Below, one piece after another: positions 9,936-63,610 of a stretch of 64,000 bases of DNA (position 1 is the stretch's first letter; each line of letters begins with the position of its first letter). The position numbers and the translations under genes are program-made. Below the pieces are notes generated by a model. The model was not told the DNA's origin. It saw nothing but the letters and a program-made list of their open reading frames with translations, and made no database searches. The DNA is from Ulota crispa (Eukaryota > Streptophyta > Bryopsida > Orthotrichales > Orthotrichaceae): contig OY987244.1 of NCBI GenBank assembly GCA_963920765.1, positions 24,036,358 to 24,100,357 of the forward strand. The letters run 5' to 3'.

Positions 9936-10667
9936 TAGTAGATTGTCCTTGCATGCACATTGTTTGACTATAAATCGAACACGGAGCCTTCACTCAGTAC
10001 CTCCACTTTGCTTGGAATCACAGTATTTGACATGAATTTCCAAAAGCTTCATTAGGATGGAGTACTGCATGCTAATATTCTAGCAACCTAGGCTTATAGA
10101 GCATTTCTCTTAGACATAAAAAGTATTTGTTGCAGCACAAGAATATCCATTGATTCTTGTATTATAGTGACATTATAGGCAACTTTCCTTGTGCCGAGAA
10201 AGCACATGAATATCTAAATGATTACCGGAGTTGCTAAAGTACGTTCTACACATTGTCAATCAAAAGTTTCACCAAGTGAAGGGAGTAGGATGGCCTTCTT
10301 TGTCAAGGAATCCTTGGACGTATTGATACAAATATATTTGTTGTTATCCATATTATGACTATTGGAAAGCTCTTAGCAATACTTTTCCAACAGTATGTAC
10401 CATGCTCATTTGAAACTAAAACAATATTATAATATGACCTATTGCACTTACATGCAAGCTACATTCAATTATTGAACTTGGCAAAGTTTACAATAATCTT
10501 GAACTACTTAGAGCACGTGTTTTGTCCATAAATCAAAATAATCAAGTTTGTCAACTACTTGCACTTCCACATATTGGTATTGATGCAAACCTGATTTTAA
10601 ATGCCCTTTATCAAAAATGACTATACGTGGAAATTTGCTCATAACAATATTGAACACTTCAACTTAA

Positions 10668-10893
10668 CCCTTAAAAGATCATAGGGAATAGTATACAAGT
10701 GGACGTATAATTATCATTTGCTACTAATAAGAAATTTTAATTTGGGATCTCAAGTATCTCACTAGAACTGCATTGATCTATTCTCCAACTTCTTTGTTGA
10801 TCTCATATGTAGTAGAGGTGTGGATCCATTCCAAATACAAGAAAAACACCCCATATTGTATTGGCCGCAAAGGGCCTTTAGGTCGTTTAAGGG
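10668..10893. mobile_element. 226-bp TTAA-flanked (piggyBac-like) MITE
   Basis: TTAA occurs at both borders (10664-10667 and 10894-10897). The ends are imperfect inverted repeats, CCCTTAAAAGATC at the left and CCCTTAAACGACC read inward from the right (2 mismatches in 13). There is no coding capacity. TTAA duplication with CCC-starting termini is the piggyBac signature; class assignment is an inference from the ends only. Confidence 0.6.
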
Positions 10894-11377
10894 TTAAGTT
10901 ATTGGTACCAAATGGTCTCTTGACTATTCTTTCTTGTGCATTGTTTTGATTTTCACCTATAATAGAAGATAGAGGTTTGGTTCTTGTCTTGTGGGATACT
11001 TCTAAACCAAGAATGCTAACCAAGGATTGTATTAATGTTAGAGCATCCCTAATCCAACACTCTAAACAACCTATTAAATATATTACTATCCTTTACTTGG
11101 TGTAAAACCAAAACTTGTGATTACTATCATTGAAAGTGTATACAAAAACTCTTTAAATATACAAAATAATATATGGAATTGAAAATTGGACAATAAAAAC
11201 AAAGCCCTTTGAAAGTATGTAAGTATATTCAAAATTATTTGTACTTAATTTTTTATTGAACAAGGGCCAATGCAAATCTAATTATAGATTAAATTTCTTC
11301 AAGCTTTCCAATATTCAATTATTAAACTCCTAACTTGCTAATCAGATTTACTGTGCATTATATTTATCTATTTATCT

Positions 11378-11796
11378 ATGGGGATTGATATGTCTACCAC
11401 ACCCTTTCAGCTATTTGACCACACCCTTGGGTAAATTTTAGATTTCTACCATCAAATAGTTGACTTTGAGAATTTGGAATTCAAGTTTGGACTTAGAGAC
11501 ACTAGTTTTGCCTAGAACCATAACAAAAGGTTGTAATTGAACAACACCCAATGGAAAAGCTTAGCTTGGGGGAAAAGTATTACTTCTACTTTTGTTTATA
11601 AAAAAAGATAAGCCTTTTCATTGGATACGTGTTGTTCAATTAGAACCTTTCTATGATTCTAGACAAAATCATGGTCTCTAAGTTCAAATCTAAATTCAAA
11701 ATTCTTAAATTCAGCTTTATAATGGTAGAAATCTTAAAATTTATCCCAAGGGGGTTTGCAAATATCAACCCCCGGTGTGCATATATCAATTCCCTA
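11378..11796. mobile_element. Fold-back element, about 420 bp, with long imperfect inverted arms
   Basis: Most of the left half (from GGGGATTGATATGTC) reappears inverted in the right half (ending ATATATCAATTCCCTA). The arms are about 190 bp, with matching internal phrases such as GATTTCTACCAT, ACTTAGAGAC and AATTGAACAACAC. No open frame is supported. The RNA or single strand would form a long stem. Confidence 0.7.
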
Positions 11797-11920
11797 AAAG
11801 TATAGCAAGATATTATATATCCCCTCCACAAGCACTTTTTTCAAATCAAAAATACCAATTCATCAAAAATACCAATTCATCAAAAATGTTAGCACATTGT
11901 TTTCATTTCACCCCGCATTT

Positions 11921-12021
11921 CACTAGAAGAAAACCGCGTTAGAATCTGCGTTGGAAACAAGGAACTCAACAAAAACTACAGTACATGAAAACTTAGATTC
12001 TAACGCAATTTTCTACTAGAC
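11921..12021. mobile_element. 101-bp mini fold-back with CACTA-like end
   Basis: The left end, CACTAGAAGAAAACCGCG, is mirrored by the right end (inward reading GTCTAGTAGAAAATTGCG), with GTTAGAATCT shared by both arms. The left terminus resembles CACTA-superfamily ends (CACTA followed by AGAAAA), but the right terminus is imperfect and no 3-bp target duplication is clear. Confidence 0.45.
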
Positions 12022-14344: not shown

Positions 14345-14407
<63 letters not shown>

Positions 14408-17824: not shown

Positions 17825-17868
17825 CACCATTTATCCCATTGAAGATTTGAAATATAAGAATCTATAAC

Positions 17869-22800: not shown

Positions 22801-22998
22801 AAGCACTTGAAATCACGCAAGAATTTTTTGTTAGGTAAGGGCATAGATGCAACCTTGCAAGGGCTTTGATGTCACAACATGATTCTAGCATGAAGAACCA
22901 CCCCACTTGATCCAATCTTGCCTAATGTGACAACTATGGTTGTAAGTTGCTGTATGTTGCAATTGCAAGCAGTGTAAGCGGAAACATGGGGTTGGATG
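19881..22998. other. AT-rich gene desert, nothing recognised
   Basis: Only short AT-rich chance ORFs are present (for example 20,240-20,458; 22,293-22,487; 22,654-22,869). No TIR pair, RNA gene or conserved domain was seen. Confidence 0.5.
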
Positions 22999-23000
22999 TA

Positions 23001-24583
23001 TAGTGACGAACAAAACCGAGTATTCAAATAGAGAACTCAAGTTTAACTAGAGTTATATGACACTTGATAACATGAATTGTTAAAGTGAATGATAGAAGTG
23101 CAAAAACAACTTGTTCCACTCATGTGTGTGAAAACAAAAGGTGGAAAAGTGATAAAGTGCTTTAGAACCAAGAGTTTGAACCACTTAGGGTTTTAGTACT
23201 CAGTATTGTTCAAAGCCGTCCGTCGCACTTCAAAATTTGTTTCTGTGAGTGTTTGCGCTTGTTCTGGAGAGGTTGTTGGTGTGTTGCAATTCTATGCCTG
23301 TGGACTTTGTGGGGATAGTGAGGGTTTTCTATTGTTTGAGTATGGCTCTTGTAATTGAGATGAAGAGAACCGTTGCCTTGTCTCAACTTCGGAGCGGTCT
23401 GTTGATACGGAAAGTAGCTGTTTCAATTGGTATGAGTCAATCGTGGGTGGCTCAATTGCAAAAGGAGATTGCTAGAGAGGTGGAGAAACAAAAAGGAAAG
23501 TGTCCAAAGCATCTTAATGCGAGAGAGAGGCGACGTTGTGCAATCCTACTCACTGAAGGTTGTCTTGGAATTGCGTCAAAGACAACAAAACAATTTCAAA
23601 GCGAGACAAGTAAAATTGTGTCTGACATTATTGTGAGGCGCGCTTTGAGAGGTGAAGGTTTGGCTGCATGTGTGCAACAAAAAAAACATTTTTTGGCACG
23701 GACACGTTTTGGCACGTTTGAGGTTTGCTCAAAGGAATGCAAACTGGACAACTCATGATTGCAAACGTGTTATCTTTAGTGATGAGACAAAGATAAATAG
23801 GTTCTATTCATATGGTAGGTCCTGGTGTTGGATTAGAAATGGAGAGCATGTTCAACTGCAGCATCTTTGTCAAACAGTGAAACACAGTGGCGGACATATC
23901 ATGATTTGAGGTTGTATGATAGCATTTGGACTTGGAGCTTGGTATAGGATTGAAGGTATTATGGATCAACATAAGTACAAATTTATTTTAGAAAACTTTT
24001 TGTGGTCTACAATTCGGCATTATAGTATGGATCCAAGCAACTTAGTGTTTCAGCAGGATAATGATCCAAAACACACAAGCAAGTTGGTGCAGGAATGGTT
24101 TAAATTGCAACCATTTGAGCTTCTCCAGTGGCCTGCTCAATCTCCAGACTTGAATTCCATAGAGCATTTCTGGGCTTTTTTGAAACGGCAATTGAATGAG
24201 TTTTCTACGCCTCCAAGAGGAATTGAAGAATTGTGGGAGCGTGTGTGTACAATTTTCTCAAGTTATAGTTAGGAGGATTGCTTAACATTGTATGAAAGCA
24301 TGCCGCAAAGAATTGTTGTTGTATTAGTTGCTAAAGGCTATTGGACAGATTATTGAAGTTCAAAAAATAAGTTGAACAATATTGAGTACTTGTATACATT
24401 TGTAGATTATAGGTTGTAAGAAATTATATATTTATTAATTTGATTTATGGTTTTGCATACATGTTCACAACTCTATTTGCTTATGAATACAATTTATAAC
24501 TCTAAAAAATGTTATGTAGATTGTTTGTAATTGTATTTTGAAGTTCACTTCTTGAAAATAGTACTCAGTTTTGTTTGTCACTG
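23001..24583 (+). mobile_element. Tc1-type DNA transposon, copy 1 (1,583 bp)
   Basis: It is flanked by TA (22,999-23,000 and 24,584-24,585). The right terminus reads inward CAGTGACAAACAAAACTGAG; the left terminus has the same sequence with a few changes (TAGTGACGAACAAAACCGAG), including a mutated first base. It carries a broken DD34E transposase in + orientation. It is the same length as copy 2 (57,592-59,174, opposite strand) and differs from it at only a few bases by eye, so the two are products of recent transposition. Confidence 0.93.
23342..24272 (+). pseudogene. Tc1/mariner (DD34E) transposase, frameshift and in-frame stop
   Basis: Cut-and-paste transposase of the Tc1 group. The N-terminal DNA-binding helix-turn-helix is visible (QLRSGLLIRKVAVSIGMSQSW). 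The catalytic core shows the first Asp in VIFSDETKI, the second in FQQDNDPKHTSK, and the Glu in SPDLNSIEHFW, with 34 residues between the second D and E. Two lesions are present. A shift lies around the A8 run at 23,679-23,686, after which the frame moves to HVLARLRFAQRNANWT. A TGA at 23,907-23,909 sits where the family has Trp (MIWGCM). The ATG at 23,342 is chosen because the helix-turn-helix follows directly; an upstream non-ATG extension to 23,249 is open. Not functional as read by the standard code. Confidence 0.9.
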
Positions 24584-24585
24584 TA

Positions 24586-24637
24586 CATGCATCATTTTTT
24601 TTGAATTCCCGCCTTTGAATTGTGTTGAATCACAACT

Positions 24638-27568: not shown

Positions 27569-27569
27569 G

Positions 27570-28839
27570 TAGGAATACCCATTCTTGTGAGGGTCCCCAT
27601 AACCATCACCTCTGAAATCTTGAAAAATTTATGGAAGTAATTAGATGTAATGACAAAGATGTATAACTCAAGGACATGAAACCTTGGTGTTGGTTATGGG
27701 TGCGCTTGTAATTTGCTCTTTAAGAATTCATAATTTGTTCTCACAGTATTCAAATAATACATTGGAAAGTGCAAACTCATTATTTTTTTGTTACTAATAG
27801 GATCATATAATTTCCTAGATGTTTATTAACCCCTAAAGGACCAAGTGGTTGTTCAACAGCCACTTGAGAACTTGGGTAGAGTCATATGAAGTCAATTTTT
27901 ATTGAATGGTCTCTAAATTGTTACACAAAGTGTAAATATGTATCCCGTAAGTAGAGATGTAATGTTTTCCCCAATCGAATGCCCGGTTCAAAAGTTATGT
28001 TACCCAAAAGAATTTGTGCAGCTCAAGCAGCTTGGGCATCTTTGGAGAATCTTATGGTAAAACTCTCATCAACTTTTGAAGTTTGGCAAGTATGTAACTA
28101 AAAATACATAATGTACAATTGTCAAAAAATAATAATAATTGAACTCTTACATTACATTTAGAAGGGAGTCAAATTTTGGTAACTATATTCAGGTAGTTTC
28201 AAGAAAAAAAAAAATTCCTCTAACTTCAAAGTCTATTATCTTTCAATTTATAAATTCAAAACTCTTGAATTTTTTTTTCACATATTCCAAATGATTGTCT
28301 CTAACTTTTTGCCATTTAGATTTCAAAGAAAAGACTTCCTCATTGCACAAAAAATCATGAAAGAATGACTAGTGTATTGCCAATTCAATAAACCTCCTTG
28401 CACTGCATGGTGATTTAGAATAAGCTAGATTCTATCTTTGCATCTAAAAATTTTCATGAGTGAACCTAACATCATATACTTGTGAATAGTCAAAAAACTC
28501 AAATTTGTGTAGTGCAAAAATTTTACTTTAGGAAGGCTCAAAGTCTTTTGACCTTGTTTTGCTAGAATGAAAAAAAGCTATTTTTCTCACTTCAAATGTT
28601 ATATTCTTACAATCCGCGCGGTTAAATGGGCTGAATTTTTTTTGCACACAGTAACTTATCTATTTGACACACTTTTATACGATTGGAATTGAGAATACAG
28701 ATATTTATTTTCGATTTTGGGCAATGCACTAAAAGCTAGCAGTTTCTAATATTTTTTCTCAAAAAACACCCTTGATCCTTTAGGGGTTAATAATCATTAT
28801 GTTCAAAACCCTTAAACTCACGCTTATGGGTGTTCCTGC
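27570..28839. mobile_element. Small TIR element (S family, copy 1) split by a TTAA element
   Basis: The outer ends are related inverted repeats (left TAGGAATACCCAT; right, inward, CAGGAACACCCAT). The internal sequence matches the element at 61,029-61,333 almost throughout (for example tccccataaccatcacctttga, ttatgggtgc, aataatacatt, gttcaaaaccctta). It is interrupted at 27,830 by 957 bp of unrelated DNA bordered by TTAA. Without the insertion it would be about 310 bp, like the other copy. Confidence 0.75.
27830..28786. mobile_element. 957-bp TTAA-flanked (piggyBac-like) element nested in the S-family copy
   Basis: TTAA lies at both borders (27,826-27,829 and 28,787-28,790). Terminal repeats are CCCCTAAAGGACCAAG at the left and CCCCTAAAGGATCAAG read inward from the right, one mismatch in 16. 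The uninterrupted copy at 61,029-61,333 reads gtttaTTGAtactcatcatg where this one reads gtttaTTAA[element]TTAAtaatcattatg, showing precise insertion with duplication of four bases. No transposase frame is present, so it is non-autonomous. Confidence 0.85.
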
Positions 28840-30338
28840 CTTACCCAATTTACAAATGAGATGAATTTTTGTTTTTCTAACCATAAATTTACTAATAAAT
28901 AGATTTTACTCTTGAATGTATAAGCAGATTTGTTTATAATTTTACAAAGTTCTTCTGTTGTCAAATTCTACACGTAATGCTTTTCTAACTATGTAAGCTT
29001 ATAAAATAAAATGAAAATTATAGCTTTAACCTTTTGCTTGATGTTTTGAACCCAAAAAATTGAAAAAATAAAAGGCTACTTCAATCAAAGGTACACTTCA
29101 TTGACAATTTTGTTAGGTATTTAGAATTTCTACAAATGTTCTAATGGAGGTCAAGAAATATTGTATTAAAATCTTTTGTACAAAATAGACCCCTGGACAT
29201 AGACACGTTACAAAATGCAAACTAAAGCAAAGCCACGTATAAAAACAAAGCACAAAAAAACCAAAAAATAAAGATTTGAGACTTGTGGTGGTTTAAATTT
29301 TTATTTACAATAAACTTCTTGATATCTAAAATTGGAATAAAATGAAATAAGTTTACCTACGTTTCAATAGTACTAATTTATCAATTGAGTAATTTGCAAT
29401 ATAAAATCCTTGCACTTATATATTTACAAAATTTCATATTCATCACATGATATTCTTATAAACCTCAAATTTTATGCATTCATAATTATATTGTCTAAGA
29501 TTTTAAAGGTTTTCCAATTTAAGTATAAAGACGTTTTCAGATTTCAGGATCTTAATATTTCAAAACTCCCAAATCAAAAAAAAATGTGGCATTGGTGGTA
29601 CAAAAAAAAAAAATTGCTTTATTTTTGTATTCCATTTGTTTTTATGCACATTGTAAAGCTCCCAGTAACCATCTACCTATATAACAGAATTCAATTCACC
29701 TCTTGGCGATATTCATGGGTAAAAATCTCACCTCTTGGTGATCCTTTTAAAGAACGGGTAGAAAACTCATGGGTAAAAACAAAACATGTTTTGTTGCATG
29801 AATAAATTGGAACGTGCGGGTAAAAACAAAATTGCCTTACTACGCATGTAAATTGGATTGCGTTCGTAAAAACAGAAAAAAAAGATCCTTTCATTGCGTG
29901 GGTAAAAAAAATGGATCCTTTTACTGCAAAAATTTAAAATTTAAAATTGTTTTATTATATGGTTAAAGAACAAAAAACATTTTACTATGTGAGAAACATT
30001 TGTGGAATTGGGCTTGAAATTATTTTGCTTCTCGTTGGACCGACAGGTATCTATACTAGTTTCATGATAACAATATTCAAATTTTTATGTCACAATTAAA
30101 ACAAAAATACTACATTTTAAATTTTGCATAACGTATGAAATAAATAATACTTTATTTGTTATCTTTTTTATACTATCAAAAATATTCCCATATTTTGCAC
30201 ATTATGTTGAAATTGGTCACTTGTAGTTCAAGTCCAAAGCATGGATCTGCCACGTCTGTCTTTGAATTTTGTAAGCTATATTTTATTAGAACTTCTGTTT
30301 GTCTTGTAGCCTTGCTTAGCTTAGTGCCACTTCACTAC
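28840..30338. other. AT-rich intergenic stretch with scattered GGGTAAAAA phrases
   Basis: No gene. Between about 29,710 and 29,920 the phrase gggtaaaaa recurs several times at irregular 40-60 bp spacing, often preceded by catg or gcg, like a decayed minisatellite. The open frame at 29,410-29,805 overlaps it and is considered chance. Confidence 0.4.
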
Positions 30339-30340
30339 TA

Positions 30341-30998
30341 CTCCCTCTGTCCCATTATAAAGCTCCAAAAAACTTCTCCATGAGTGATTAACTATATTTT
30401 TAGTCATTATGCTAGTGACTAATGCATTCTAGAATCAATATACCACCTACCAAATATTTGCAAAATTTCAAGTTGTTATGTTGCTGTTTAGACACCCAAA
30501 TTCCATGCAAAAAGTACCATATTTGTGCATAGTTTGTGAAGGCTGCCGGCTCCTCATTATTTTTGTCTTTGTACTAATGATACATACTTTCTAGAGTCAC
30601 TATACCATATACCAAATGTGTGCAAAATCTCCAACTTTGATGTTGTTGTTTGGGCACCCAAATTCCATGCAAAAAATACCATATTTGTACATGTTGCTAG
30701 CTCCTCATTATTGATGATTTAAAAAATTAATAGCAACAATGGTACCTTATATGGGCAAAGCCAAGCTTGTTAGGAGAGGAATGCTCTTAAATTGCTTAAC
30801 CCCTCACCGCCTGCGGTTGTCAAATAAGTTGGGAATCAGGGCCAACAATGTCTGCTTGGGCAATGAGGGGTTAACTTGCCCCCATGAGGTCTTTGGACAT
30901 GACAAATGCTTTCTTAGCAATTGAAATTAGCAAAAGGGAGCTTTTTAGTGGGACAAGAACTATGCCTAATTTGGAGCTTTATATTGGGACAGACGGAG
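30341..30998. mobile_element. Stowaway-like TIR element (658 bp)
   Basis: It is flanked by TA (30,339-30,340 and 30,999-31,000). The termini form a 29-bp inverted repeat with two mismatches, beginning CTCCCTCTGTCCCATTATAA at the left and CTCCGTCTGTCCCAATATAA inward from the right. This matches the classic plant Stowaway/mariner-MITE end (CTCCCTCCGTCCC). The interior holds two diverged tandem units of about 140 bp (about 30,420-30,560 and 30,590-30,715; shared phrase cacccaaattccatgcaaaa). A 71-bp TTAA-bordered insert lies at 30,800-30,870. No transposase is present. Confidence 0.88.
30800..30870. mobile_element. 71-bp TTAA-flanked micro-element inside the Stowaway copy
   Basis: The borders TTAA (30,796-30,799; 30,871-30,874) enclose ends CCCCTCACCGCC and, inward from the right, CCCCTCATTGCC. 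These match the ends of the larger element at 32,040-32,661, so this is probably an internally deleted relative. Length 71 bp, no coding. Confidence 0.65.
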
Positions 30999-31130
30999 TA
31001 CAAGCCTGGGCTTTGTGAAGATTAGGTTGAGTGAAATAAGACTAAATACAACACAATTTAACTTGTGAAGCGAGGGAATGTGGATTGGGCATTCAAGCTT
31101 CAATCTTAAATTGCCAACAACCAAGTTTAA

Positions 31131-33545: not shown

Positions 33546-33577
33546 TTCTTGTAGGTAGGGACAAGAATGTGCTTTTA

Positions 33578-34544
33578 TCCCTAAAGGACCAAACCCTTTT
33601 TTTAACAACATAGCGATTTTGGGCAGGTACCTGTGATTAGAGCTTTTCATCATATTTTAGGCTGAAATTTTGATAGAATATGGGAACATGGTTTATCTTT
33701 CATATGCACTAAATTTCATGACATTTGGAATTAAGAGTAAAAAGTTGTGGCCTAATATGTTGTTTTTTTCACTTGGCACGCAACTTGGGCAGATTTTTAA
33801 AAAACACTTTTTTCAAAAACAAATTTTTTAAATTAGTTTAGGAGATTTATGTGAATGTAGGAAGCTTTTAATCATCCCGTTTTGATCAACAAGATGAAAG
33901 CTATGAGGATTTTTTTTTTTTTTGCAAGCAATTATGGATTCTCTACTCTAAAATAAACTTTGAAGTCTTTTCTTTTTCTCAATTTTCATTAATTTGGAAA
34001 AGAACAAAACCAAAGGATTTAGATGGTTTATTACAACATTATGACCATTGGGATTGGCATTTTTCATTTCCATATTTAAATTCTTAACAATTTAGTGTTT
34101 TGAATCATTCTCTACTTTTTTTTACTTCAACTTTTTTCCATATGTTATACAATTCCTAATGATTTGAAACTTTTTTGACCTGTACTTTACTTAGGAGGAA
34201 TAAGGAATTTAGAGAAATACCACCCACATGACCTTTTTCCTTAGGAATTTCACTTTTTGAAGGGTAGCTGCCCAGTTTTTCCTGAGAGTTTTTCACAAAA
34301 TGTTTTTGAATATTCAAACCATTCTATCTTCCAATCCATGCGGTGAAAAACTCTGAGATTTATTCCACATCTTCTAAATATATTCTTCTACAAAATCCTA
34401 CGGTCACATATGCATAAAAATGTTCTTGTTTTCAAATTTGGCTGATGCTTAATAAAATTAAAAAGAAAAAAAAAAAAAAGAAAAAAAAAAGAAAAAGGCA
34501 GTTTTGGAGAGTTTTGGTGAAAAGTTTGCTTGGTCCTTTGGGGG
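33578..34544. mobile_element. About 967-bp TTAA-type (piggyBac-like) element
   Basis: The right border is TTAA (34,545-34,548); the left border has decayed to TTTA (33,574-33,577). Ends are TCCCTAAAGGACCAAAC and, inward from the right, CCCCCAAAGGACCAAGC, the same terminal family as 27,830-28,786 and nearly the same length, but with a diverged interior. Non-autonomous. Confidence 0.65.
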
Positions 34545-34548
34545 TTAA

Positions 34549-43435: not shown

Positions 43436-43973
43436 CTCTTGAAGAATATGCATTAACCGTAACACTGTTTATATTATCGTTACTTATAACATGTGATTAT
43501 AACATATGTGGGTTTATATTTAGGGAATTACTACAGCGACACCCTAAATTGCTAACGGGATACACCCTGCGACTATGAAATTTGATCATTTAGTGTTATT
43601 TTTTATTTATTCTCATTCATTCAATCGCGGCATTACCACTTCTTTGAAAGAAAAGAGGACAAATACAAATTTTTGTTGAAATATCCCACAAGAGGCTCCA
43701 AGTTCGTAGTATGGATGACTGCTGGACCAGTGCCGCCGTTTAAGTTGATCAGGGAGAGAGACGTTTATTAATCAGGTTCCTTTATGTCTGATGTGTTCTT
43801 AAACGATGCGAGTTGGCGTGGAACCCATGCTAGAGCATTTTGTTAGTGCCGGTTCTGATTGATTGGTACTATGTTTTGTACAGCCAGGGGGTCTTCTTCC
43901 AAACTATTTGACTAAACCATTAGCCACTGGCACTACCCTTAGACCTAAGTTTGCATTCCTGAATAGGAGAGGA
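43436..43973 (+). other. Short intergenic / 5' region of the DUF2232-like gene
   Basis: No coding similarity. A splice-acceptor-like tgtacag at 43,877-43,883 opens directly into the in-frame extension upstream of the ATG at 43,974, so a leader or first coding exon may lie here. No matching donor could be chosen. Confidence 0.35.
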
Positions 43974-46178
43974 ATGGGGCCATTTCTTTCAGGAGAGCGA
44001 GCAGCCTTCTGTTGTAAATCAGTAATAAATTCCGGTTCATCAGCTGGTACGACGTCGGATGACAAAACGCCTGATCCCAAAGAAGATGGCTCCATATTGA
44101 CAGGAGATGGAAGTGAGCTGCGAAACACTGTACGTTTGGTAGAATGTGCCATGCTGGCAGCCACTGCTGGCCTTGCTTACTTCCTCAGCAATCTTCTTCG
44201 GATTGAGGTAAAACAATTTCTTAGAAGTCTCCACTTAGCCAAAGCTGTGGTTCCCTGTTTTCTACAAGGTATCAGTGTTTTGCCTTCAAGTTAGCCCTAA
44301 GTGCCCAAACGAAATATCGAATCTCCACCTCGGTAGCTTCTTTTCATGAACAAATACTTTACAAGACATAATACCATCGGTTTAAAAATGTAGGACGTGA
44401 TGTCCTCTTTCTATTGGAATTATTGTTCTATTTCTTACAGCCTTTAAATGATTTATTTCTAAGTCCTATAGAATATGGAAGCGGCCACTTTTAGCCACTT
44501 AGGCATTAAGTTCTGATTAACCTCATATGTACACGTCAAAGGAAACTGCTAGAGGTCCAAAAACACCTGGTTAAGGATCAATATGATACGAGAGGCAGTA
44601 GTCGCCGTGTGAATACAATTGCTATGGTTAACCTAATAAGGGATGGCAGGCTTATTTTGGATGTTTCTTCCCCTTGCCGGTGGTTATATCGTCTATGCGT
44701 TGGGGAGCTTCTGCAGGCAGAAAGACTATGGTATGATGACTCAAACTCAAGCATTACTGTCTCCTGGAGCTCTTTCAAGTTTCTGGCATTTGAGAAAAGC
44801 TTATGAAAAACGAAGTCTGTCAAAAGTCTTCTGTAACTGAGACGTTTGTCTTCGGCGTGATGTACATTCCAGGTGGCAACAACTATGCTACTGCTTATAC
44901 TTTCGGGACCTCTGAAGGCTGCTTCTTACATGGTCTGCTATCTGCGCTTTGCAATTCGCTCTAGAACCAAAACTATTCATGTTGATACGAAGGTTTTTTG
45001 TGATTTTTGTGCGTTTATCATTTTTTCCGAATTTTTGGAAGCATTGACGAACTTATCAAGTGACAAATTGATGAATTGCAGTTAATGCATGGATTTGTGG
45101 GGCTAGCTATGGGAGCCTTCTGGAAGTAAGTTCGTTCATACATCCTTAGCTACTTAAGTCATTAGAGGAGTTGATTGTTCTTGTTTCATCGTTCTTGGAC
45201 AACAGGTGAGCTGACGCGTAGGTCTTACTTTGCAGATGGAACCTAAATTGGGGACTCTCCATAGCAGCCTGCACAGTGGTAACAGTCTTTACATCTTTTT
45301 TTTATCAAACTTTGCCTTGTAATTGGCCAATGACGAAGCCTATTCAACTTTTAATTTCTACGAACAAGGTTAAACTGGACATTATTTTCCTGGTTTTGCA
45401 GGTTAGATGTCTGGGAGCATTGGGGTTTGTACTTCTGACTTCATGGCTATTGCGGGACAATCTTCTAGCTCTGGTGAGTTTCTTCGAATCGTGTCTTTGG
45501 TCATACTTTTTATACAAGAAATTTCAAAGAATGACTTTCAGATGCGCTTTTGAATGTGCTCTCAACTGTCCCTGTACTTGCTTTCAGGTTCCTTGCTCTA
45601 AAGTTTCATTTTAAAAGATTGTACATCTGTCATCCTGCATGATTTGTGTTTTGTTCCATCCTGCTCAATATGTTGTGAAATGACTTGAATAAACTAGGAC
45701 CAGCTATAGAATTATCTTTTAATTATGACCAAGTCCAGTTTTAGTTCTAGTAACGATGGGGTTTCTCTGTCCATGAAACATTGTTTGCTCGGCTGTTGTG
45801 CAGATCACCATGAATGCTCATGCATCATTATCTTACATGTTGGCAGCTTTGGGGATCAACTTAGTCCCAACAATGCCCATGATTTACGTCGTCTTTGCCT
45901 CCTTGGTGAGTGTTTTTCTCTTGCTCATGAAACGTAAGTCGTGTGTAGGAACATGCAGGGTCTTTCTCGTCTTATTATTGTGACAAATTCTATTTTGTTG
46001 GCTCATTGCTTTTATGTTTTTACACTCATCTAATTTTTCCTGTTGGTGTTGCACGCAGCTTGTGGTAAACTGTGGCTCATTTGTTTTCCTGCTCCATGTC
46101 CTATATGCCATCTTTTTACAACGACTAGGTCTGAGGGGCTCCATCACTGTTCCAGGGTGGGTAGAACGAGCTATGTGA
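43974..46178 (+). CDS. Multi-pass membrane protein, probable DUF2232 family (plastid)
   Basis: Function unknown; the resemblance is to a plant chloroplast-type membrane protein family related to bacterial YybS/DUF2232. Exons in phase are 43974-44207, 44650-44730, 44873-44932, 45082-45125, 45236-45278, 45402-45473, 45804-45905 and 46059-46178 (251 aa from this ATG). Hydrophobic helices run through most of it: ECAMLAATAGLAYFLSNLL, FFPLPVVISS, TMLLLILSGPLKAASYM, then a GLSIAACTV/LGALGFVLLTSW pair, MLAALGINLVPTMPMIYVVF and a final helix CGSFVFLLHVLYAIFL. The conserved blocks KWNLNWGLS and ITMNAHASLSYMLAALG support the model. The residues before the first helix would be the transit peptide. The frame is open upstream to an acceptor at 43,884, so the true start may be in an earlier exon. 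It converges with the carrier gene (stops 328 bp apart). The family name is from memory. Confidence 0.7.
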
Positions 46179-48999: not shown

Positions 49000-50296
49000 A
49001 GCTTCACTTCATACCCTTACCCGACTTCATCTTATTCTCACGCCACCCCATTGCTCTCGGAATGGACAAAGCTCCTCGATGCCGATGCGGCCTTTGTGTG
49101 CATCCCCATGACGTCCTATACACGCCGCAGTCTACCATCATGCCCCTCACTTGGATGTTAACATGGCCATACAGTTGCGAATGCGACGATCATGCAACAG
49201 GTTTCGTGACTGCATTGAGTGAAGCAGGCCATGGTGAAGGAATTGTTGCTTCTTGACCGCTCTCTTGATGGATCATGCTCCACATGGTCGGCATACACGC
49301 GACGCTCCATCCTCTGTCGCCGTGATCGAAACCTGGGTTGCAAAAAGCATCCACCTGTTCCAATCACAGAGCATTGCATTGTATTGGATTCTTAGGTCAG
49401 ACCCTCCACGAGCACGTTTTCCATTAGGGATGCTGAAATGACCATGAACAAGCATAACAGATGATGAGCACGATGTTTCGAGAGAGATATATGTTCATGA
49501 TCCTACGATTCAAGGACTTTGCAAAAGAGTGCATCAACGATTCTGCAGATATATCGGTGAGGTGGATTTCTCATCTTGTATACCACTCATCCTGTGTGGG
49601 TTCACAATGTAAGGAATTTTGTTTCTTTCTTGATTTTCAAGCATCAATTCAACACCGCTAAGTTAAAACGAATGTGGGGTGCAAGGAACCTGATTCGCGC
49701 CGCATCCATTGTACACAAATGTCATCGTCAAAAACTTCGTCAGGGCTGAATCGCTTCATGCTTCGGCCCTACCGATCTTTGAAGGTCACCACTGCAACGC
49801 TGTCTCTTCGATTTCAAAAGGCATCTGAAGACATAACCACCTAAGCTTATTTGCCGCCACAATGGTCAATTCTCAATCTTCGCCATGGGCGCTGACGATA
49901 ATCAAGGATGACCTATGACCATTTCTCATCCACTCGATAGTGGAACACTAGATCGGGATTTCAGATTTCCAGATGTTGGATATAGCAGCAGCCAATCTCT
50001 TCCGCCCCTCGGCAGAAACGTTTCCGCGACGCCCCCAAATCTTTCCATAATTCGTCCAGCAAGGGCTTCTCTATCTCTCGATAACCGAATGTTCGCATGT
50101 TGGTTCTGAAATTCAAGGATTCGAGCTTCTGTTGCGAGCACTATCCACCTCCGAGGCTACAGAGCAAGCCTTGTATATTGATTTCGAGGGCGCGTCTGGG
50201 ATTTGGATGTTCTGGGCATGAGATTGTGTTTGTGCGTTTCAGGGATTTGATGGATCATTTTAGGATGACTTTAGAAGGATGTGGTGACGGAGCGAG
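49000..50296. promoter_or_regulatory. Divergent intergenic region between the carrier and the PPR/zinc-ribbon gene
   Basis: The two genes are transcribed away from each other, so this 1.3 kb contains both promoters. Small open frames on both strands show no conserved domain. The right 300 bp (from about 49,997) is the part shared with the duplicated copy at 41,505-41,799. Confidence 0.45.
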
Positions 50297-52235
50297 ATGG
50301 TGAGCGCGCTGTCGGGGTCGAGTGTGTGCCCCGCCGCATCGTCAGCTTCTGTCTTCAGACGATTCAATGCAACAGGATGCTGTGCCGCAAACGGTGACGA
50401 GCTGGTGACCCGAGCGAGGGAGAAGATGGCGAGCTTCTCCGGCGGCAGTGTGGCGAGTGCTGTCTTCGCCGGGTCGGAGCATGCGCATCTGCGGGGCTTT
50501 GGAGCTCCAGAAAGGGTGCTGCGAAGGGCGGGAGTAGCTCTACCACGACCCGTGCCGTGGAAGCCGAACAGGGTACGGGAATTGGCCAAAACCGGCAGGA
50601 GAGAGGCGTCTTGTTTCGCGGCAGCTGAAAAGGGTGGCACCCAGGTCGACAGTGCAGCGGAGGGTCGTAACTCCGAGTCCGAGAACAGGATCGAGGAGGA
50701 TGGGGCGCGATCGTCGATGGGCGAGGACATCGACAGTCTGGGGAAGATGGCGGAATGTGCAACCGAGAAGCTACTGGAGAATCTGGACGCTGGTGCAAGA
50801 ACGGCGCAGACTGAGGAGACCGGGGTGAGGGACGCAGGGTTTTGGAGGCGAGTGGGAACGGCGAGCGACGCAGGAGCGGCGCTGGCGATGATTGCCGAGA
50901 GAGCTGGAGGTTCTGGTGGGGTGGCGAGCAGCGAAGAGTGTTCGAAGCTGATAGTGGGTGCTCTTGCGCAAGGGAACTCGGAGCTGGCGTTCTCCGTGCT
51001 GAAAGCCATGCGCGGCAGCGTCATGGGACGGCGCATCGAAGGAGATGGTAAGACTTGCCAAAACCCTGGAAGCAAAACCCTGAAGTGTTTGTGGTGTTGC
51101 GCAGCATGGAAATGGTAGCATGTGGAGATGGATGGGAGGGGAATGAATGTGTGGCGTGGGCGTTGGACAGAGAAAGGGTCACGTGTGGAAGGGTGGCGAT
51201 GGGCGCAACCCAACGTGAACATATATGCCACACTGGTGCGAGGATTGGCAGCGTCGTTGCGAGTTGCAGATGCCATAGAACTGGTGGCAGATGTTCGACG
51301 ACGTGGAGTTCCGGCTGGAGACGAGGTAGTGTTGCCTACCGTTAGAGAGCGAAACGCATTCTGTATGGTCATATTGCATGGAGTTTGTTGTCTCAGAATC
51401 GATAAAGCTTTCCTCTCACAGAACATTCTTAAGAGGTTTATTAGTTAGCCCATCTTCCACTTCATCTGACAACATATGAAACAAAGCCTGAGATTGGTGT
51501 GCAACTACCCTACTACTTGTGCTTTTCCTCAGGAGTGCCATGTCTAGTGAGTGATCTCAGGGACTTCTCTCTGTAATTGTCTTAGACTTATAGATGGATG
51601 AGGATGTGTGCCGAAGGAGATAATAGAGCATGAGGGTCTCTTTAACACCTTGATTGTTCCTTGATTTATGAAATGGGCTCAAATTGTTACAAGCCTCTTT
51701 CAAGTATGCTATGCAGGCTTGGTTGCAATGTGTGCAGTTTGTAATTTCTCAAACATAGGGATTAGATGGGGGTTGCAGGTTCCTTTCGGTAAAGTTGTAA
51801 GCTGCCCCACTTGCAAAACGGCATTGGCCGTCGTCCAACCTCAGCAAGGTGTCCAGGTATTCCTTGATTCTCTATCTATGGCAGTGGATGTTCCAGAGTA
51901 GGAATAATTTCAATGCGAACTTAATCTTTGCACACTTATTCAAATATAAATTCTGTTTATGAAGCACAGAATATTCTGAAAGAGCTGCCTGGTTACCGTT
52001 AGAATCATTGAACCTTGAGCAGGAAAGGGATCCAGATTGTTTATGCTCGGTCTTGAGCTCATCGTCAGTTTGCAGAGGCGGGTTTGGCTGACGTTAGAAC
52101 TTTTTTTGTTTCGTTTCATGTAGTCCTTGGTTGGCATGTGTGCATGTGGGTTTTTTCTGGGTGTGCTTGCTTGAATACCTGGCAATGGTGTAAAGTGCTT
52201 GAAAAACGTGCTAGGTCTTCAATGCTTTATTGCTA
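49997..52235 (+). repeat. Segmental duplicate (partner of 41,505-43,435)
   Basis: Leader, exons 1-3 and introns 1-3 of the complete PPR/zinc-ribbon gene; see the partner block. The longest identical stretch covers the start codon and about 320 following bases. Confidence 0.9.
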
Positions 52236-55803: not shown

Positions 55804-57589
55804 CCCTTTCTCCTCACAGCCAGTTCATGCCAACCTCTTCTCCAGGCCTGTCCCAATTTGCCTTGTTGACATGGTTGGGTAGTTTTGCAAAAAACCTTAG
55901 GTGGTGAACTTTGAGTGGACACCTTTGTTTGCAACGTACACGAATTGATGGAGATGGGGATGCAAAATTGCAGACATTGAATGAGTTTCTGGACGATTGG
56001 TCTAGCTCATATTGTTGCCAGGTCAGACCTGGTCACTAGTCAAATGGAGTGTTTTCATTGGAAACATGAAATTTCTAGAAAACCATGATTCATGTAATTC
56101 TGGGTGATATACTGTAGTCTTTGACAAAATGAGCGTACTTTTTAAAACACTCAACCTCCACTTGCTGGTGTCTATTACAGATTCTGTACTCTCGAGCAAT
56201 TATTTACCCTCTCACGTGAATGGGTCACTGATGACAGGAGCTATAGGACATTGTTGGTTGTATTTTGTATCTACAAGGACGCTCAGTAACAACTTCATAA
56301 ACGAGACATTATTGCTGTTTGCGATATGCAGATTGCACAGTAGAAGAAGGCGGACTTTTACAGGTAAAACTTTGGATTGAAAACCAGCAGGCTAGACGCC
56401 AAGGAGCTCTTGAAACTGGTTGCCTGAGGAGCAACCATGGAATGTAATTAATCTGCATGTAAATGGAACAACTGGGATTTTCCCACCCAATTTTTTCTCT
56501 GTCTGCCTGTCTTGGAAATCGCAAAACTGTAGGGTCGTAGGATTTGGAATCTCAATGAAAGCTTTTGCTTTTAGATTGCTTGGATAAAAAGGACCAAAGG
56601 GTGTTGTTTGTGCACCACAAGCGCGAGTTCCAGGAATTCTAAGGGTACCATTGTGTTTTTTTTAGTATGGAATTTGCATTTATGAAGAGTGGTTAGCTGC
56701 GTCCTTGGTTGAGATTTTCATATCAATTTCCTTTGAATGATCTCACAGGGTACTCAAACCGCACTGATATTTCTCAATTCTCAGCCTTCTGAGTGAATTT
56801 GGGACCAATCCATCCAAAAAGCTCCCGTTTTACAGCATCAATTGGCCAATACTTCAACTTTGCCGGATACAGCATGTTGGATCTTAAGTTTGGCCACTTA
56901 AAATACTTTAATCTTATACCCATGACATGCTGATTTTCCTCTTTATTTCAATTATGACTAGGCGGGAAGTCTAATTGTTCCTAAGTACTCCTGTTTAAGG
57001 TGTAACATTGCAATAATACACTTGTGAAACTCAAGTAGGCCAATTCAAGGAACATGAAGGGAATTTACTAGCTTTCTGTAATTTCACTTGGAAGGGGTAA
57101 AGCAACACTTTTACCCCCGCCACCTATAGTTGGCATACATCTTATAAATTCAACCGCCTTTGGTCAATTTTGGGATGCCCCCTTTATTTTTGCCCTTCTA
57201 AAGTTTTTCGATACACTTTTGCAAATAAAAATGCAATATAGTTTAGCATATCCATGGGTGGTTGAACTTGAAATAGTTAACCAACAAATTGATGGCATGG
57301 ATTTGCAATTCTTTATCATAACGTAATCTTATCAGTTTTTACAAAAAAGTTTTTGTAGACAACCAAAATCATGGCGCAATTGCTCATCTTATCATTCTAC
57401 ATCCAAAATGCAAGATAAATGAAATCAAATACGAGGGGCTAAAAAACATATTGTTGTTTTTACCATTATGAATAACACGAAAGATACTTCTCTAGATCCT
57501 AAAAAAACTAAATGAATTTAGTAGGTTTCCTCAAAAGTTCATTTCCTCTTCCAACAAGCATTTAAGATCCTCACAAAAACTGTTTGTAT
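55804..57589. other. 3' flank and intergenic DNA
   Basis: 3' UTR of the PPR/zinc-ribbon gene, then AT-rich sequence. No gene, TIR pair or RNA gene recognised. Confidence 0.5.
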
Positions 57590-57591
57590 TA

Positions 57592-59174
57592 CAGTGACAA
57601 ACAAAACTGAGTACTATTTTCAAGAAGTGAACTTCAAAATACAATTACAAACAATCTACATAACATTTTTTAGAGTTATAAATTGTATTCATAAGCAAAT
57701 AGAGTTGTGAACATGTATGCAAAACCATAAATCAAATTAATAAATATATAATTTCTTACAACCTATAATCTACAACTGTATACAAGTACTCAATATTGTT
57801 CAACTTATTTTTTGAACTTCAATAATCTGTCCAATAGCCTTTAGCAACTAATACAACAACAATTCTTTGCGGCATGCTTTCATACAATGTTAAGCAATCC
57901 TCCTAACTAAAACTTGAGAAAATTGTACACACACGCTCCCACAATTCTTCAATTCCTCTTGGAGGCGTAGAAAACTCATTCAATTGCCGTTTCAAAAAAG
58001 CCCAGAAATGCTCTATGGAATTCAAGTCTGGAGATTGAGCAGGCCACTGGAGAAGCTCAAATGGTTGCAACTTAAACCATTCCTGCACCAACTTGCTTGT
58101 GTGTTTTGGATCATTATCCTGCTGAAACACTAAGTTGCTTGGATCCATACTATAATGCCGAATTGTAGACCACAAAAAGTTTTCTAAAATAAATTTGTAC
58201 TTATGTTGATCCATAATACCTTCAATCCTATACCAAGCTCCAAGTCCAAATGCTATCATACAACCTCAAATCATGATATGTCCGCCACTGTGTTTCACTG
58301 TTTGACAAAGATGCTGCAGTTGAACATGCTCTCCATTTCTAATCCAACACCAGGACCTACCATATGAATAGAACCTATTTATCTTTGTCTCATCACTAAA
58401 GATAACACGTTTGCAATCATGAGTTGTCCAGTTTGCATTCCTTTGAGCAAACCTCAAACGTGCCAAAACGTGTCCGTGCCAAAAAATGTTTTTTTTGTTG
58501 CACACATGCAGCCAAACCTTCACCTCTCAAAGCGCGCCTCACAATAATGTCAGACACAATTTTACTTGTCTCGCTTTGAAATTGTTTTGTTGTCTTTGAC
58601 GCAATTCCAAGACAACCTTCAGTGAGTAGGATTGCACAACGTCGCCTCTCTCTCGCATTAAGATGCTTTGGACACTTTCCTTTTTGTTTCTCCACCTCTC
58701 TAGCAATCTCCTTTTGCAATTGAGCCACCCACGATTGACTCATACCAATTGAAACAGCTACTTTCCGTATCAACAGACCGCTCCGAAGTTGAGACAAGGC
58801 AACGGTTCTCTTCATCTCAATTACAAGAGCCATACTCAAACAATAGAAAACCCTCACTATCCCCACAAAGTCCACAGGCATAGAATTGCAACACACCAAC
58901 AACCTCTCCAGAACAAGCGCAAACACTCACAGAAACAAATTTTGAAGTGCGACGGACGGCTTTGAACAATACTGAGTACTAAAACCCTAAGTGGTTCAAA
59001 CTCTTGGTTCTAAAGCACTTTATCACTTTTCCACCTTTTGTTTTCACACACATGAGTGGAACAAGTTGTTTTTGCACTTCTATCATTCACTTTAACAATT
59101 CATGTTATCAAGTGTCACATAACTCTAGTTAAACTTGAGTTCTCTATTTGAATACTCGGTTTTGTTTGTCACTG
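57592..59174 (-). mobile_element. Tc1-type DNA transposon, copy 2 (1,583 bp)
   Basis: It is flanked by TA (57,590-57,591 and 59,175-59,176). The ends are intact CAGTGACAAACAAAACTGAG and, from the other side, CAGTGACAAACAAAACCGAG. It has exactly the same length as copy 1 at 23,001-24,583 and is near-identical in reverse orientation. Unlike copy 1 both terminal bases are intact. Confidence 0.94.
57903..58833 (-). pseudogene. Tc1/mariner (DD34E) transposase, same lesions as copy 1
   Basis: Mirror image of 23,342-24,272. It carries the same frameshift at the A8 run (T8 on the + strand near 58,490) and the same in-frame TGA (58,266-58,268) in place of the conserved Trp. The only protein difference I see is a Phe for Tyr near the C-terminal end (IFSSFS versus IFSSYS). 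DD34E residues are retained as in copy 1. Confidence 0.9.
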
Positions 59175-59366
59175 TAGATCCTCCATAGTTCTTTGTGGCA
59201 CTTGAAAAATTAAGAAAAATGAGACAACCAAGTATTAGTCATTCACTGAGATGCTTATAGAGTGTCATTGTACTTGCAAGGCTCTTCAATAGGGGATTTC
59301 ATATATCTCAAAAAAAACATTGAACAAATGGTCGTGAATTAGTTTTCGTTCACCAATGAATACGCT

Positions 59367-59391
59367 ATGACAACCTCCGGGAGGTTGTCAT
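59367..59391. repeat. Perfect 12-bp inverted repeat
   Basis: ATGACAACCTCC and its exact complement are separated by a single G. It is too short and tight for an element end; a possible cruciform or protein-binding palindrome. Confidence 0.7.
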
Positions 59392-59483
59392 GGCTCGTTC
59401 ACATAGTGACTTGCCCACGTTTTTCACGAATCTTATTCACGTGGACAATTTTGGTGCTGAACGGCATATTTGAAACCCCCTAA

Positions 59484-59857: not shown

Positions 59858-59860
59858 TAA

Positions 59861-61026: not shown

Positions 61027-61028
61027 TA

Positions 61029-61333
61029 TGTGCACCCATAAGCACCAGTGTCCCCATAACCATCACCTTTGAAAATCTTGGAAAATTTGTAGAAGTGAAT
61101 AGATGTAATGACAAGGATGTACAACATGTGAACATGAAATCTTGAAAGTGGTTATGGGTGCAATGGTGGTTTGCTCTTTAAAAAATCACAACTTATTCTC
61201 ACAATATCCAAATAATACATTTGAAAGTTCAAACTCATTATTTTTTTGTTCCTAATAGAATCCTATAATTTTCTAGCTGTTTATTGATACTCATCATGTT
61301 CAAAACCCTTAGTTTGACGCTTATGGATGTACA
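61029..61333. mobile_element. Small TIR element (S family, copy 2, uninterrupted)
   Basis: Ends TGTGCACCCATAAGC and, inward from right, TGTACATCCATAAGC, flanked by TA on both sides (61,027-61,028; 61,334-61,335). The interior matches 27,570-27,825 and 28,791-28,839, so it is the unoccupied reference for the TTAA insertion at 27,830. About 305 bp, no coding. Confidence 0.8.
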
Positions 61334-62703
61334 TATCTTAGAAACAAGTTTTTATAATAGAAATCCTTTAGTTTTTGCTTAACACTTGTAACTAATTCCT
61401 TGATTCCTATATGGATTAAAGTATTTGATTTTCTTATTGCATTAATCAAGTGACGGTTTTTTGAAGATGACATGAATATTCTACAAAACTAAAGAGACAT
61501 TTCTTCATCATAGAGGGATACAATTGTTTCATCAAAAAAAATGATTTAGGGCAGTTGCATAGTCGGTTGACCCAAAATGCGTGTCCCATTTAATTTTCAG
61601 GAAGATGTTTTGATTGTAAGGCTTATTTCTTATTGAAGAAAGAGCTTGGAAGCATCCTAAATTAGTAAATATGTTCTATAGTTGTTCATAAAACAAAATA
61701 TGTAATTAATATTTGCTAAAATTGATAATACTAGAAATAAGGGACTTTTCAATGCATATATTTGGAGTGTCCCATTCACAGCATCCTTTGAGCATTCACA
61801 ACATCCTATGAAAATGATAGACATAATATATCAATTTAGCTTTAATGCGTACATAGGGACTACATATGTGATTTAGCATCTTTTAAGTATTTCAAAAACA
61901 TGCTATAATTTTAGACAAGTGGCGTACAAGAATAGCCATGGATTATTTCGTGCCGGCTGAATGTTTAGGCGGCAATATCTAAATGATTTTAACATTTTTT
62001 TAGTTTTTTCTTTTTTCTTTTGCAAAAGTCTTCCTAATGGCTACATGAGCTTGGCTTTTTTTGTAGAATGCATGTATTTGTATAAGAAAAACAAACACTT
62101 TGTGATCCATACTCATAGAAATTTCAAAATTTTGGACTTTTTATGAGGTCTTATCTGCCGTTTTGGGTCAAATGACCATGCAAGTGCCCTTTACTTAACA
62201 TTATCCAAATTAAAGTGGGAGTAAATATTAAATTTTAACCATGTTGCCAAACAAATTCAACAATTGTCAAATAGTATGGGAAATCTCAAAATAATGTACA
62301 TAAAACTTAGCCCCGAGAGGACCAAGCCCACTTTTTTTGCAAAGAACACTCAAAACTATCATTTCTAATCATTTGATCTTGAGAAGAGAAAAATTGTTTT
62401 TCAAAAAAGAATTGTAGAATTTGCACTAGATTTATGCAAGAAGACATGGTGAAAGTTTTGTGAGGTTTGACTGTAAACTATGAGAGATATAATCATACAA
62501 AGTTAGTATAAAAGTTTTTTGACCTTTGCTAGAAAGTTTTAGGTCCTTTTGACCAAATGTTGTCGATATTTTTTGCATTGTAGGAGTTGAAGAGATTTGT
62601 TCAACACGCTCTAAATTGTGTTAGGCATAATTCCACAAGTTTTCATGACCAACATAGCTAGAAATGAAACATACTCTACATTGGCCTGCAATCCTTGCAT
62701 TAA

Positions 62704-62943
62704 CCCCTGAGTGCCTAGAGTTGAAATGAAAAAGCCTGACTTGTGCGCAATCAAAGTGCCCCTGTGGACTGAAAAATATGATCCTCAAGATCACACCATA
62801 TGAATTGTTAGTGGAAGGCATCTCCATCATGCTGGGCTCAATCAGAAGTGGTTTTACCGCACGTGCAATGAGATTATATTGGTCAAAATTGAGTTGACCG
62901 AGCTTTTTGAGAGACATCATAATGTTTCTTGAGCGCTCAAGGG
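62704..62943. mobile_element. 240-bp TTAA-flanked element
   Basis: TTAA at 62,700-62,703 and 62,944-62,947. Imperfect ends CCCCTGAGTGCCTA and, inward, CCCTTGAGCGCTCA. The minus-strand 99-codon frame at 62,621-62,920 runs across the left border and is not recognised; it is not called as a gene. Confidence 0.6.
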
Positions 62944-62948
62944 TTAAA

Positions 62949-63096
62949 TAGGAGAAAACTTTGTTGAAGCCAACATAAACTACATGATGTTTTCTTGTTT
63001 CTAATACAAAAATTTGTGTTGTTCAATGCAATTTTATGCATTAGAAGCAAGAAAACCTCATGTAGTTTATGTTAACTTCAACAAAATTTTCTTCTA
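62949..63096. repeat. Hairpin with arms of about 58 bp (possible small-RNA precursor or fold-back)
   Basis: The left arm 62,949-63,006 is the near-exact complement of 63,039-63,096 (core AACATAAACTACATGA matched by TCATGTAGTTTATGTT), with a few mismatches and a loop of about 32 nt. Size and mismatch pattern fit a plant miRNA-precursor-like stem or a tiny fold-back MITE adjoining the TTAA element. Confidence 0.7.
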
Positions 63097-63610
63097 GTAT
63101 ATTTGCAAACATGTGCTTTAAATTTACACTACATTGAGGTTTTCTGCAAACCAAATATTTGAAAGATATTTAAAATAAATAAATAAAAACCCAGCAATAG
63201 ATTGGAATATTTTAGCATTCTTGACAACCACAAAAAAAATAGAAAAAAAACTAAACTCTAGTATCTATTGCAATTCAAAGGTTGATTTATTTATTTAATA
63301 CAAAAATGTATATACCTAATACACTATTACTTTGGGTATACTCTAATGAGGGTCATGCCTTTGTTGGTTACTTTTGGGAGAGGTCAATGAAAAAGGCATG
63401 CTTGACCTACCTCTCCAACTAAAAATCCAGTAAAACCTTCCATAACTTTTTATCAATGAATTTGATTTAAAATATATTCACCCCACGTAGTCCTTGCAAA
63501 ATCTCTCTCAAAAAAAAGTTTAATGAAAATAAACAAAAAAATCCCAATGGTATAAGCTTGCCCAAAATCCATTTCGTCCCACATAGAGACATTGATCCTT
63601 GAGGGGTTAA

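What the first reader, a model, noticed from the sequence alone, without database searches (positions are those of the whole stretch)
10664..63610. A family of TTAA-bordered, CCC-ended elements: piggyBac-type mobility in an apparent plant genome
Seven elements (10,668; 27,830; 30,800; 32,040; 33,578; 62,311; 62,704) have TTAA (or a 1-2 base decay) at both borders and CCC/CCCC-starting inverted repeats. TTAA duplication with such ends is the known hallmark of piggyBac transposases, which are described mainly from animals, fungi and some protists and are not an established plant group. All copies here lack a transposase, so an active or extinct source must lie elsewhere. At least two terminal subfamilies exist (CCCCTAAAGGACCAAG and CCCCTCACCGCCCA).
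Basis: partly seen in the sequence, partly recalled or inferred. Interest (0 to 1): 0.9.

Follow-up and report, generated by a model that had tools for sequence, protein, structure and literature searches.

The report
PiggyBac transposons abundant in a moss
The seven small repeats are non-coding jumping-DNA elements of the piggyBac kind, and the moss genome they come from also holds many decayed piggyBac transposase genes, some with the same ends, which is unexpected because this group is known mainly from animals, fungi and protists.

Summary
The window lies on chromosome 3 of an assembly whose ten checked chromosome lengths match the moss Ulota crispa. Seven inverted-repeat elements are present; five have exact TTAA at both borders, two have one decayed border. 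A strict terminal pattern occurs 19,542 times in the genome, its reversed control once; 3,038 of 3,614 exact 16-bp ends follow TTAA. The element at 30,796 has empty sites: 40 of 40 scored relatives of its host repeat lack it, and 12 of 12 fetched show one TTAA. The predicted source exists: 120 stretches match the piggyBac transposase family, best E 1.3e-73, none in 14 control genomes, with the DDD(D) residues in most of 30 loci and a cysteine-rich tail in 21. Three transposase-bearing elements, 5.0-6.0 kb, have such ends; for the CCCCTAAAGGACCAAG ends the coding partner is only approximate. So these are piggyBac MITEs with mostly decayed transposase copies elsewhere. The kind is known; the scale in a land plant is the surprise. 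Present mobility is untested.

The parts
10664..10897 (.). E1: non-coding TTAA-bordered element, ends CCCTTAAAAGATC / CCCTTAAACGACC
   Evidence: 34 of 39 other scored genomic copies match over exactly 1-234, identities 89-91%; 3,589 first-look candidates
27826..28790 (.). E2: non-coding element, ends CCCCTAAAGGACCAAG / CCCCTAAAGGATCAAG, exact TTAA both sides
   Evidence: 27 of 39 other scored copies match over exactly 1-965, identities 84-89%; 2,059 first-look candidates
30796..30874 (.). E3: 79-bp element, ends CCCCTCACCGCC / CCCCTCATTGCC, inserted in a Stowaway-like repeat (about 30338-31000)
   Evidence: empty sites: 40 of 40 scored relatives of the host repeat run through the junction, 12 of 12 fetched show a single TTAA
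32036..32665 (.). E4: 630-bp element, ends CCCCTCACCGCCCAAG / CCCCTCACTGCCCATG; most relatives are about 650 bp
   Evidence: 31 of 39 other scored copies match over exactly 1-630, identities 82-90%; 4,419 first-look candidates
33574..34548 (.). E5: 975-bp element, ends TCCCTAAAGGACCAAA / CCCCCAAAGGACCAAG, left border decayed to TTTA
   Evidence: partial similarity to other elements
62307..63610 (.). E6: element interrupted by E7, ends CCCCGAGAGGACCAAG / CCCCTCAAGGATCAAT, left border decayed to TTAG
   Evidence: with E7 left out, its bases 1-381 and 553-758 resemble the stretch ending at the right end in L042, a transposase-bearing locus (67% over 392 and 212 nt)
62700..62947 (.). E7: 248-bp element nested in E6, ends CCCCTGAGTGCC / CCCTTGAGCGCT, exact TTAA both sides
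   Evidence: no empty site found; weakest ends (10 of 16)

Best explanation
The seven elements are MITEs (short, non-coding, non-autonomous DNA transposons) of the piggyBac superfamily in a moss, most likely Ulota crispa. Shown: they have CC-rich inverted ends, sit at TTAA, and (directly for one) duplicate TTAA on insertion; the genome also holds piggyBac transposase genes with a DDD(D) catalytic set, three of them inside 5.0-6.0 kb elements whose ends follow the same terminal pattern (two fully, the third with one base off at each end). Inferred from the known family: the transposase made by the long elements bound the ends of long and short elements alike, cut them out with TTAA overhangs and inserted them at TTAA sites. 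Several anciently separated transposase lineages did this; most transposase copies have since decayed, with stops and D-to-N changes of the kind C-to-T mutation gives.
For: Terminal pattern 9,744 + 9,798 places against 1 + 0 for the reversed control. TTAA precedes 3,038 of 3,614 exact 16-bp ends. Relatives share E1, E2, E4 over exactly the TTAA-to-TTAA unit in 34, 27 and 31 of 39 other scored copies. Empty sites with one TTAA for E3. PF13843: 120 matched stretches, 116 of 528 candidates scored, best 1.3e-73, 0 of 14 control genomes; 110 of the 120 contain stops. The only solved relatives found by sequence are T. ni piggyBac (6x67) and piggyBat (9c0f). Complete elements: L039+L009 5,027 bp, L040+L014 5,102 bp, L043 6,010 bp. 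L009 and L018 are 90.5% identical from border to border, one base beyond at the right, with no further match outside. The ends of L009 and L014 agree with ends of E3, E4 or E7 at 12-14 of 16 bases. Catalytic positions are D in 27, 22, 26 and 25 of 30 loci. Cysteine ribbon in 21 of 30. Past purifying selection: apart from L009/L018, the 13 other closest pairs have dN 0.12-0.27 with dS 0.89 to saturated.
Against: No complete transposase-bearing copy was found with exactly the CCCCTAAAGGACCAAG end. The nearest is L042's right end CCCCTAAAGGCCCAAG (15 of 16 with E2); its left end was not found, and that right end could belong to a MITE beside the gene. Ten transposase loci were read with wider flanks (L009, L014, L018, L041-L047); a clear pair of ends was seen in three (L009, L014, L043), and L018's pair is known from its alignment to L009, its left border reading TTCA. 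L043's ends match the window's at only 11 of 16. TTAA duplication is shown by empty site for one element; the same test for E7 found none. The first 300 bp of the L014 element match only themselves in the genome, so long and short elements share mainly their termini. No present-day movement was tested.
Confidence: 0.94

Rival explanations
1. The short elements belong to another superfamily with TTAA duplications (Kolobok, recalled as having them), and share CC-rich ends with the piggyBac copies by accident.
For: TTAA duplication alone does not separate the two; for the AAAGGACC subfamily no complete coding source was located. No search for Kolobok transposases was made.
Against: Transposase-bearing piggyBac elements in the same genome carry the same terminal pattern, and the end rule in print for piggyBac, CC(C/T)T with TTAA, is met by most ends (PMC2872659 passages).
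Confidence: 0.04
2. They are PIF/Harbinger-type MITEs with three-base TTA/TAA duplications that happen to sit in TTAA.
For: PIF/Harbinger MITEs, with TAA/TTA duplications, are a plant group (PMC10004981 passage).
Against: 84% of exact ends carry all four bases TTAA, and the empty site of E3 holds one TTAA.
Confidence: 0.01
3. The transposase genes are contamination from another organism in the assembly.
For: Only that piggyBac is unusual in land plants.
Against: The 120 listed stretches all lie on C1 to C11, the chromosome-sized pieces, and the window itself holds a MutS domain V, a homeodomain and a mitochondrial carrier.
Confidence: 0.01

Closest known systems
piggyBac superfamily (T. ni piggyBac, 6x67; piggyBat of Myotis, 9c0f)
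   Same: DDD catalytic domain, C-terminal cysteine-rich stretch, CC-rich ends, TTAA target duplication
   Different: Host is a moss. Many old lineages in one genome (median protein identity 37% over all pairs of 30 domains). Complete elements of 5.0-6.0 kb are longer than the 2.23-3.52 kb of bees (PMC10140906 passages) but within the 1.23-9.51 kb of small animal genomes (PMC10813416 passages).
Coral CMITEs and AmiPB elements (Acropora)
   Same: piggyBac MITEs with TTAA; ends such as CCCCTCAGTGTCCG, and coding elements with CCCTTAGAGACCTA and CCCTTTAACGCCC, look much like the moss ends (PMC2872659 passages)
   Different: About 100 bp and an estimated 1,600 copies in one coral (same passages); here 79 to about 1,000 bp and 19,542 exact ends
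PiggyBac entries in plant literature
   Same: C-fern annotation with 1,230 PiggyBac fragments, 122 kb (PMC6890710); PiggyBac in a list of angiosperm MITE superfamilies (PMC10004981) and of plant DNA transposon superfamilies (PMC10794571); red algae as an occasional record (PMC12732532); 'plants' named in general (PMC10140906, PMC10813416). Passages only.
   Different: Those passages show no coding elements with mapped ends and empty sites, and none concerns a moss

Membership tests
piggyBac superfamily | TTAA target site, duplicated on insertion | tested here: met
   3,038 of 3,614 exact ends preceded by TTAA; E3 empty sites with a single TTAA, 12 of 12 fetched. The empty-site test of E7 gave nothing.
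piggyBac superfamily | Short inverted repeats with a CC(C/T)T end (rule as stated in PMC2872659, passages) | tested here: met
   CCC(C/T)T ends. Exceptions: E5 left TCCCT, E5 right CCCCC, E6 left CCCCG; L043 left CTCCT.
piggyBac superfamily | Transposase of family PF13843 between such ends | tested here: met
   complete elements. The seven window elements themselves are non-coding: no listed PF13843 place lies in the window, and the one open frame of at least 120 aa that overlaps them, 62621-63022, has no Pfam match.
piggyBac superfamily | Catalytic DDD(D) | tested here: met
   D in 27, 22, 26 and 25 of 30 loci; 15 of the 20 departures are D to N
piggyBac superfamily | C-terminal cysteine-rich zinc-binding domain | tested here: met
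   A permissive CxxC...C...C/H pattern about 59-69 residues after the domain in 21 of 30 loci, several read across a stop or in a shifted frame. The Pfam search PF13842 did not complete, and the L042 protein showed no such Pfam hit.
piggyBac superfamily | Excision without footprint, transposition activity | not testable with these tools
   needs an assay or strain comparison
MITE of piggyBac type | Short, non-coding, high copy, same ends and target as a coding element in the genome | tested here: met
   for the CCCCTCAC(C/T)GCC group; for the AAAGGACC group the coding partner is only approximate

The most novel reading that the evidence does not exclude
Mosses have kept many lineages of piggyBac for a very long time, and at least one copy has become, or remains, a working gene: C1:1,180,709-1,181,995 (in L041) can be read through three exons with GT-AG joins, keeps all four catalytic aspartates, shows no recognisable transposon ends, and has relatives at 57-60% identity in unnamed public assemblies. 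It may be a plant gene taken from a piggyBac transposase.
Probability: 0.2. Interest if true: 0.75.

Novelty: new member of a known kind. Interest (0 to 1): 0.6.

Why it matters
[quoted passage not shown] Here a land plant carries some 20,000 exact transposon ends, which suggests about ten thousand copies or more, and 528 candidate transposase stretches, 116 of them scored, in several old lineages. That makes it possible to ask when and how the group entered land plants, whether transfer between kingdoms was involved, and how the plant silenced it. Eight searches with piggyBac as a term, read as listings, showed no report of piggyBac amplification in a moss; most subscription papers and all preprints are outside that library. 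The genome note of the species has no occurrence of 'repeat' or 'transpos' in its main text.

Tried and rejected
Looked for ends around further transposase loci: L041, L044, L045, L046 and L047 gave no convincing pair; at L046 and L047 only right ends resembling each other (TTAACCCTTTAGCGACC, TTGACCCTTTAAGGACC) were seen. L042 gave a right end only.

Looked for a coding source of the AAAGGACC subfamily among L001-L008: L003 and L006 at first seemed long because no right end was found, but they share only 945 bp, so they are more likely MITEs of about 0.94 kb with a decayed end.

Empty site for E7: only its own two flanks apart, plus a palindrome family. The first 300 bp of the L014 element gave one place, itself.

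A weak candidate pair at 44290-44509 (14 of 20) was not counted. Three stretches folded as single-stranded DNA (the first 75 and 55 bases of E2 and E4, and the whole of E3) gave z-scores of -2.2, -0.1 and -2.4, so no case for a special hairpin is made.

The most similar proteins in the large protein database carry no organism names, so the origin of the lineages could not be traced. (a fuzzy search) timed out and was replaced.
Full report
What was given.

Where the window lies. It is G000:C3:24036358-24100357 of an assembly of 274,817,297 bases in 157 contigs. The lineage is Bryophyta, Orthotrichaceae. The window encodes a MutS domain V, a homeodomain and a mitochondrial carrier. The species name rests on these lengths, not on a sequence comparison.

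The elements. One search gives borders, flanks and end complementarity. Five of seven have exact TTAA on both sides; those at 33574 and 62307 have one changed border (TTTA, TTAG). Four pass a strict test that Markov windows pass 0.005 times on average. No listed PF13843 place lies in the window (116 of 528 candidates were scored, so the list is not exhaustive). Of the open frames of at least 120 aa one overlaps an element, 62621-63022, and it has no Pfam match; none of at least 100 aa overlaps E2 to E5.

Genome-wide. TTAACCCCTAAAGGACCAAG occurs 23,140 times with up to two mismatches and 3,038 times exactly. The bare 16-bp end occurs 3,614 times, so 84% carry exact TTAA. TTAACCCCTNANNGNCCA occurs 19,542 times, its reversed control once. 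Of the 39 other copies scored for E1, E2 and E4, 34, 27 and 31 match from the first to the last base of the unit; the rest fall short by 1 to 60 bases. The best identities are 91%, 89% and 90%, so no near-identical copy appears among those scored. Elements also meet at a shared border TTAA (TCAA in L047) in L004, L005 and L047.

Target duplication. E3 lies in a Stowaway-like repeat at about 30338-31000 with ends CTACTCCCTCTGTCCC and TACTCCGTCTGTCCC (the label is recalled from such ends). With E3 taken out and one TTAA kept, the flanks match 40 of 40 scored places (2,725 first-look candidates) as one stretch of 92-94% identity. In 12 of 12 fetched places the junction reads TGCTTAACTTG. So the insertion duplicated TTAA, and E3 arrived after this copy of the host repeat did. 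For E7 the test gave no empty site.

The source. Pfam PF13843, which contains the piggyBac transposase domain, gives 120 matched stretches, best E 1.3e-73, and nothing in 14 control genomes. Ten of the 120, at eight loci, have no stop inside. By sequence the only solved relatives found are the T. ni piggyBac and piggyBat transposases. On an alignment of the 30 fetched domains the four catalytic positions are D in 27, 22, 26 and 25 loci; 15 of the 20 departures are N. A cysteine ribbon follows in 21 of 30 (permissive pattern).

Complete coding elements. L039+L009: 5,027 bp, ends TTAACCCCTCATCGCCAAAGG and TTAACCCTTCATTGCCAATCC. L040+L014: 5,102 bp, TTAACCCTTGACCGCCCAAGG and TTAACCCTTCACCGCCTAGCC. 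L043: 6,010 bp, TTAACTCCTAAGCGCCCCAC and TTAACCCCTAAGCACCCAGC. A second copy of the first (L072+L018) is 90.5% identical over the same unit plus one base, in other surroundings; its left border has decayed to TTCA. The ends of the first two agree with ends of E3, E4 or E7 at 12-14 of 16 bases, those of L043 with the window's at 11 of 16. For the AAAGGACC ends of E2, E5 and E6 the nearest coding locus is L042, whose right end agrees with E2 at 15 of 16 and whose last 590 or so bases resemble E6 (67%); its left end was not found. I call that suggestive, not shown.

History. Between different transposase lineages amino-acid changing sites differ little while silent sites are near saturation (dN 0.12 with dS 0.89 for L012/L022, dN 0.16 with dS 2.4 for L028/L030), so the lineages were long kept functional. 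The close pair L009/L018 (dN 0.09, dS 0.15) looks like decay after insertion. Stops in the 30 domains are TAG 64, TGA 37, TAA 16. Of 91 stops at columns with a clear residue, 51 are one C-to-T step, on either strand, from codons for R, W or Q (sum). That methylation caused it is inference.

How it works. Shown: ends, target, duplication for one element, family of the transposase, similar ends of coding and non-coding elements. Inferred from the family: binding of the ends by the transposase, cut-and-paste with TTAA overhangs, mobilisation of the MITEs in trans. Not shown: activity now.

A possible gene. L041 holds a transposase that can be read without stops across three exons; several GT-AG joins fit and no start codon was set, so the exact protein is uncertain. 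Region 165-600 of one reading has 25 relatives, four at 57-60% identity.

In print (passages only, unless said). [quoted passage not shown] 12-19 bp ends with CC(C/T)T and TTAA describe the group in PMC2872659, whose coral elements have ends much like the moss ones; a fern annotation lists 122 kb of PiggyBac (PMC6890710); two reviews list PiggyBac among plant superfamilies (PMC10004981; PMC10794571). The Physcomitrium transposon paper has no occurrence of 'piggy' (PMC7466625). The eight searches with piggyBac as a term showed me no moss report. A main survey of the superfamily (Bouallegue 2017) is not held, so I could not check it.

Verdict.

Noticed in passing
L041 (C1:1177700-1184900), exons about 1391-1989, 2961-3440, 3720-4641 in one reading: A piggyBac transposase readable without stops across three exons, with all catalytic aspartates and no recognisable transposon ends; relatives P0017-P0020 at 57-60% identity in unnamed assemblies. 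Possible host gene.
   Followed up: partly
window 22994-24604 and 57571-59181: Two 1.6-kb copies, 99.2% identical and in opposite orientation, holding a DDE_3 transposase stretch (Tc1-like by eye): probably a much younger DNA transposon than the MITEs.
   Followed up: no
window 41504-43437 and 49995-52234: A duplicated block, 78-94% identical in pieces, with long overlapping open frames on both strands.
   Followed up: no
window about 30338-31000: Stowaway-like MITE with 2,725 first-look candidates in the genome, 40 of 40 scored at 92-94% identity; it hosts E3.
   Followed up: partly
L009-L038, transposase domain: Stops are mostly TAG and TGA (64 and 37 against 16 TAA) and 15 of 20 lost catalytic D became N, a C-to-T decay signature.
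   Followed up: partly
window 31718-32039 and 32915-33230: E4 sits between long inverted arms, 81% identical over 328 nt, perhaps a larger, older inverted-repeat element.
   Followed up: no
L004, L005, L047: Elements that meet head to head at one shared border TTAA (TCAA in L047), as if a border had served as the next target.
   Followed up: no
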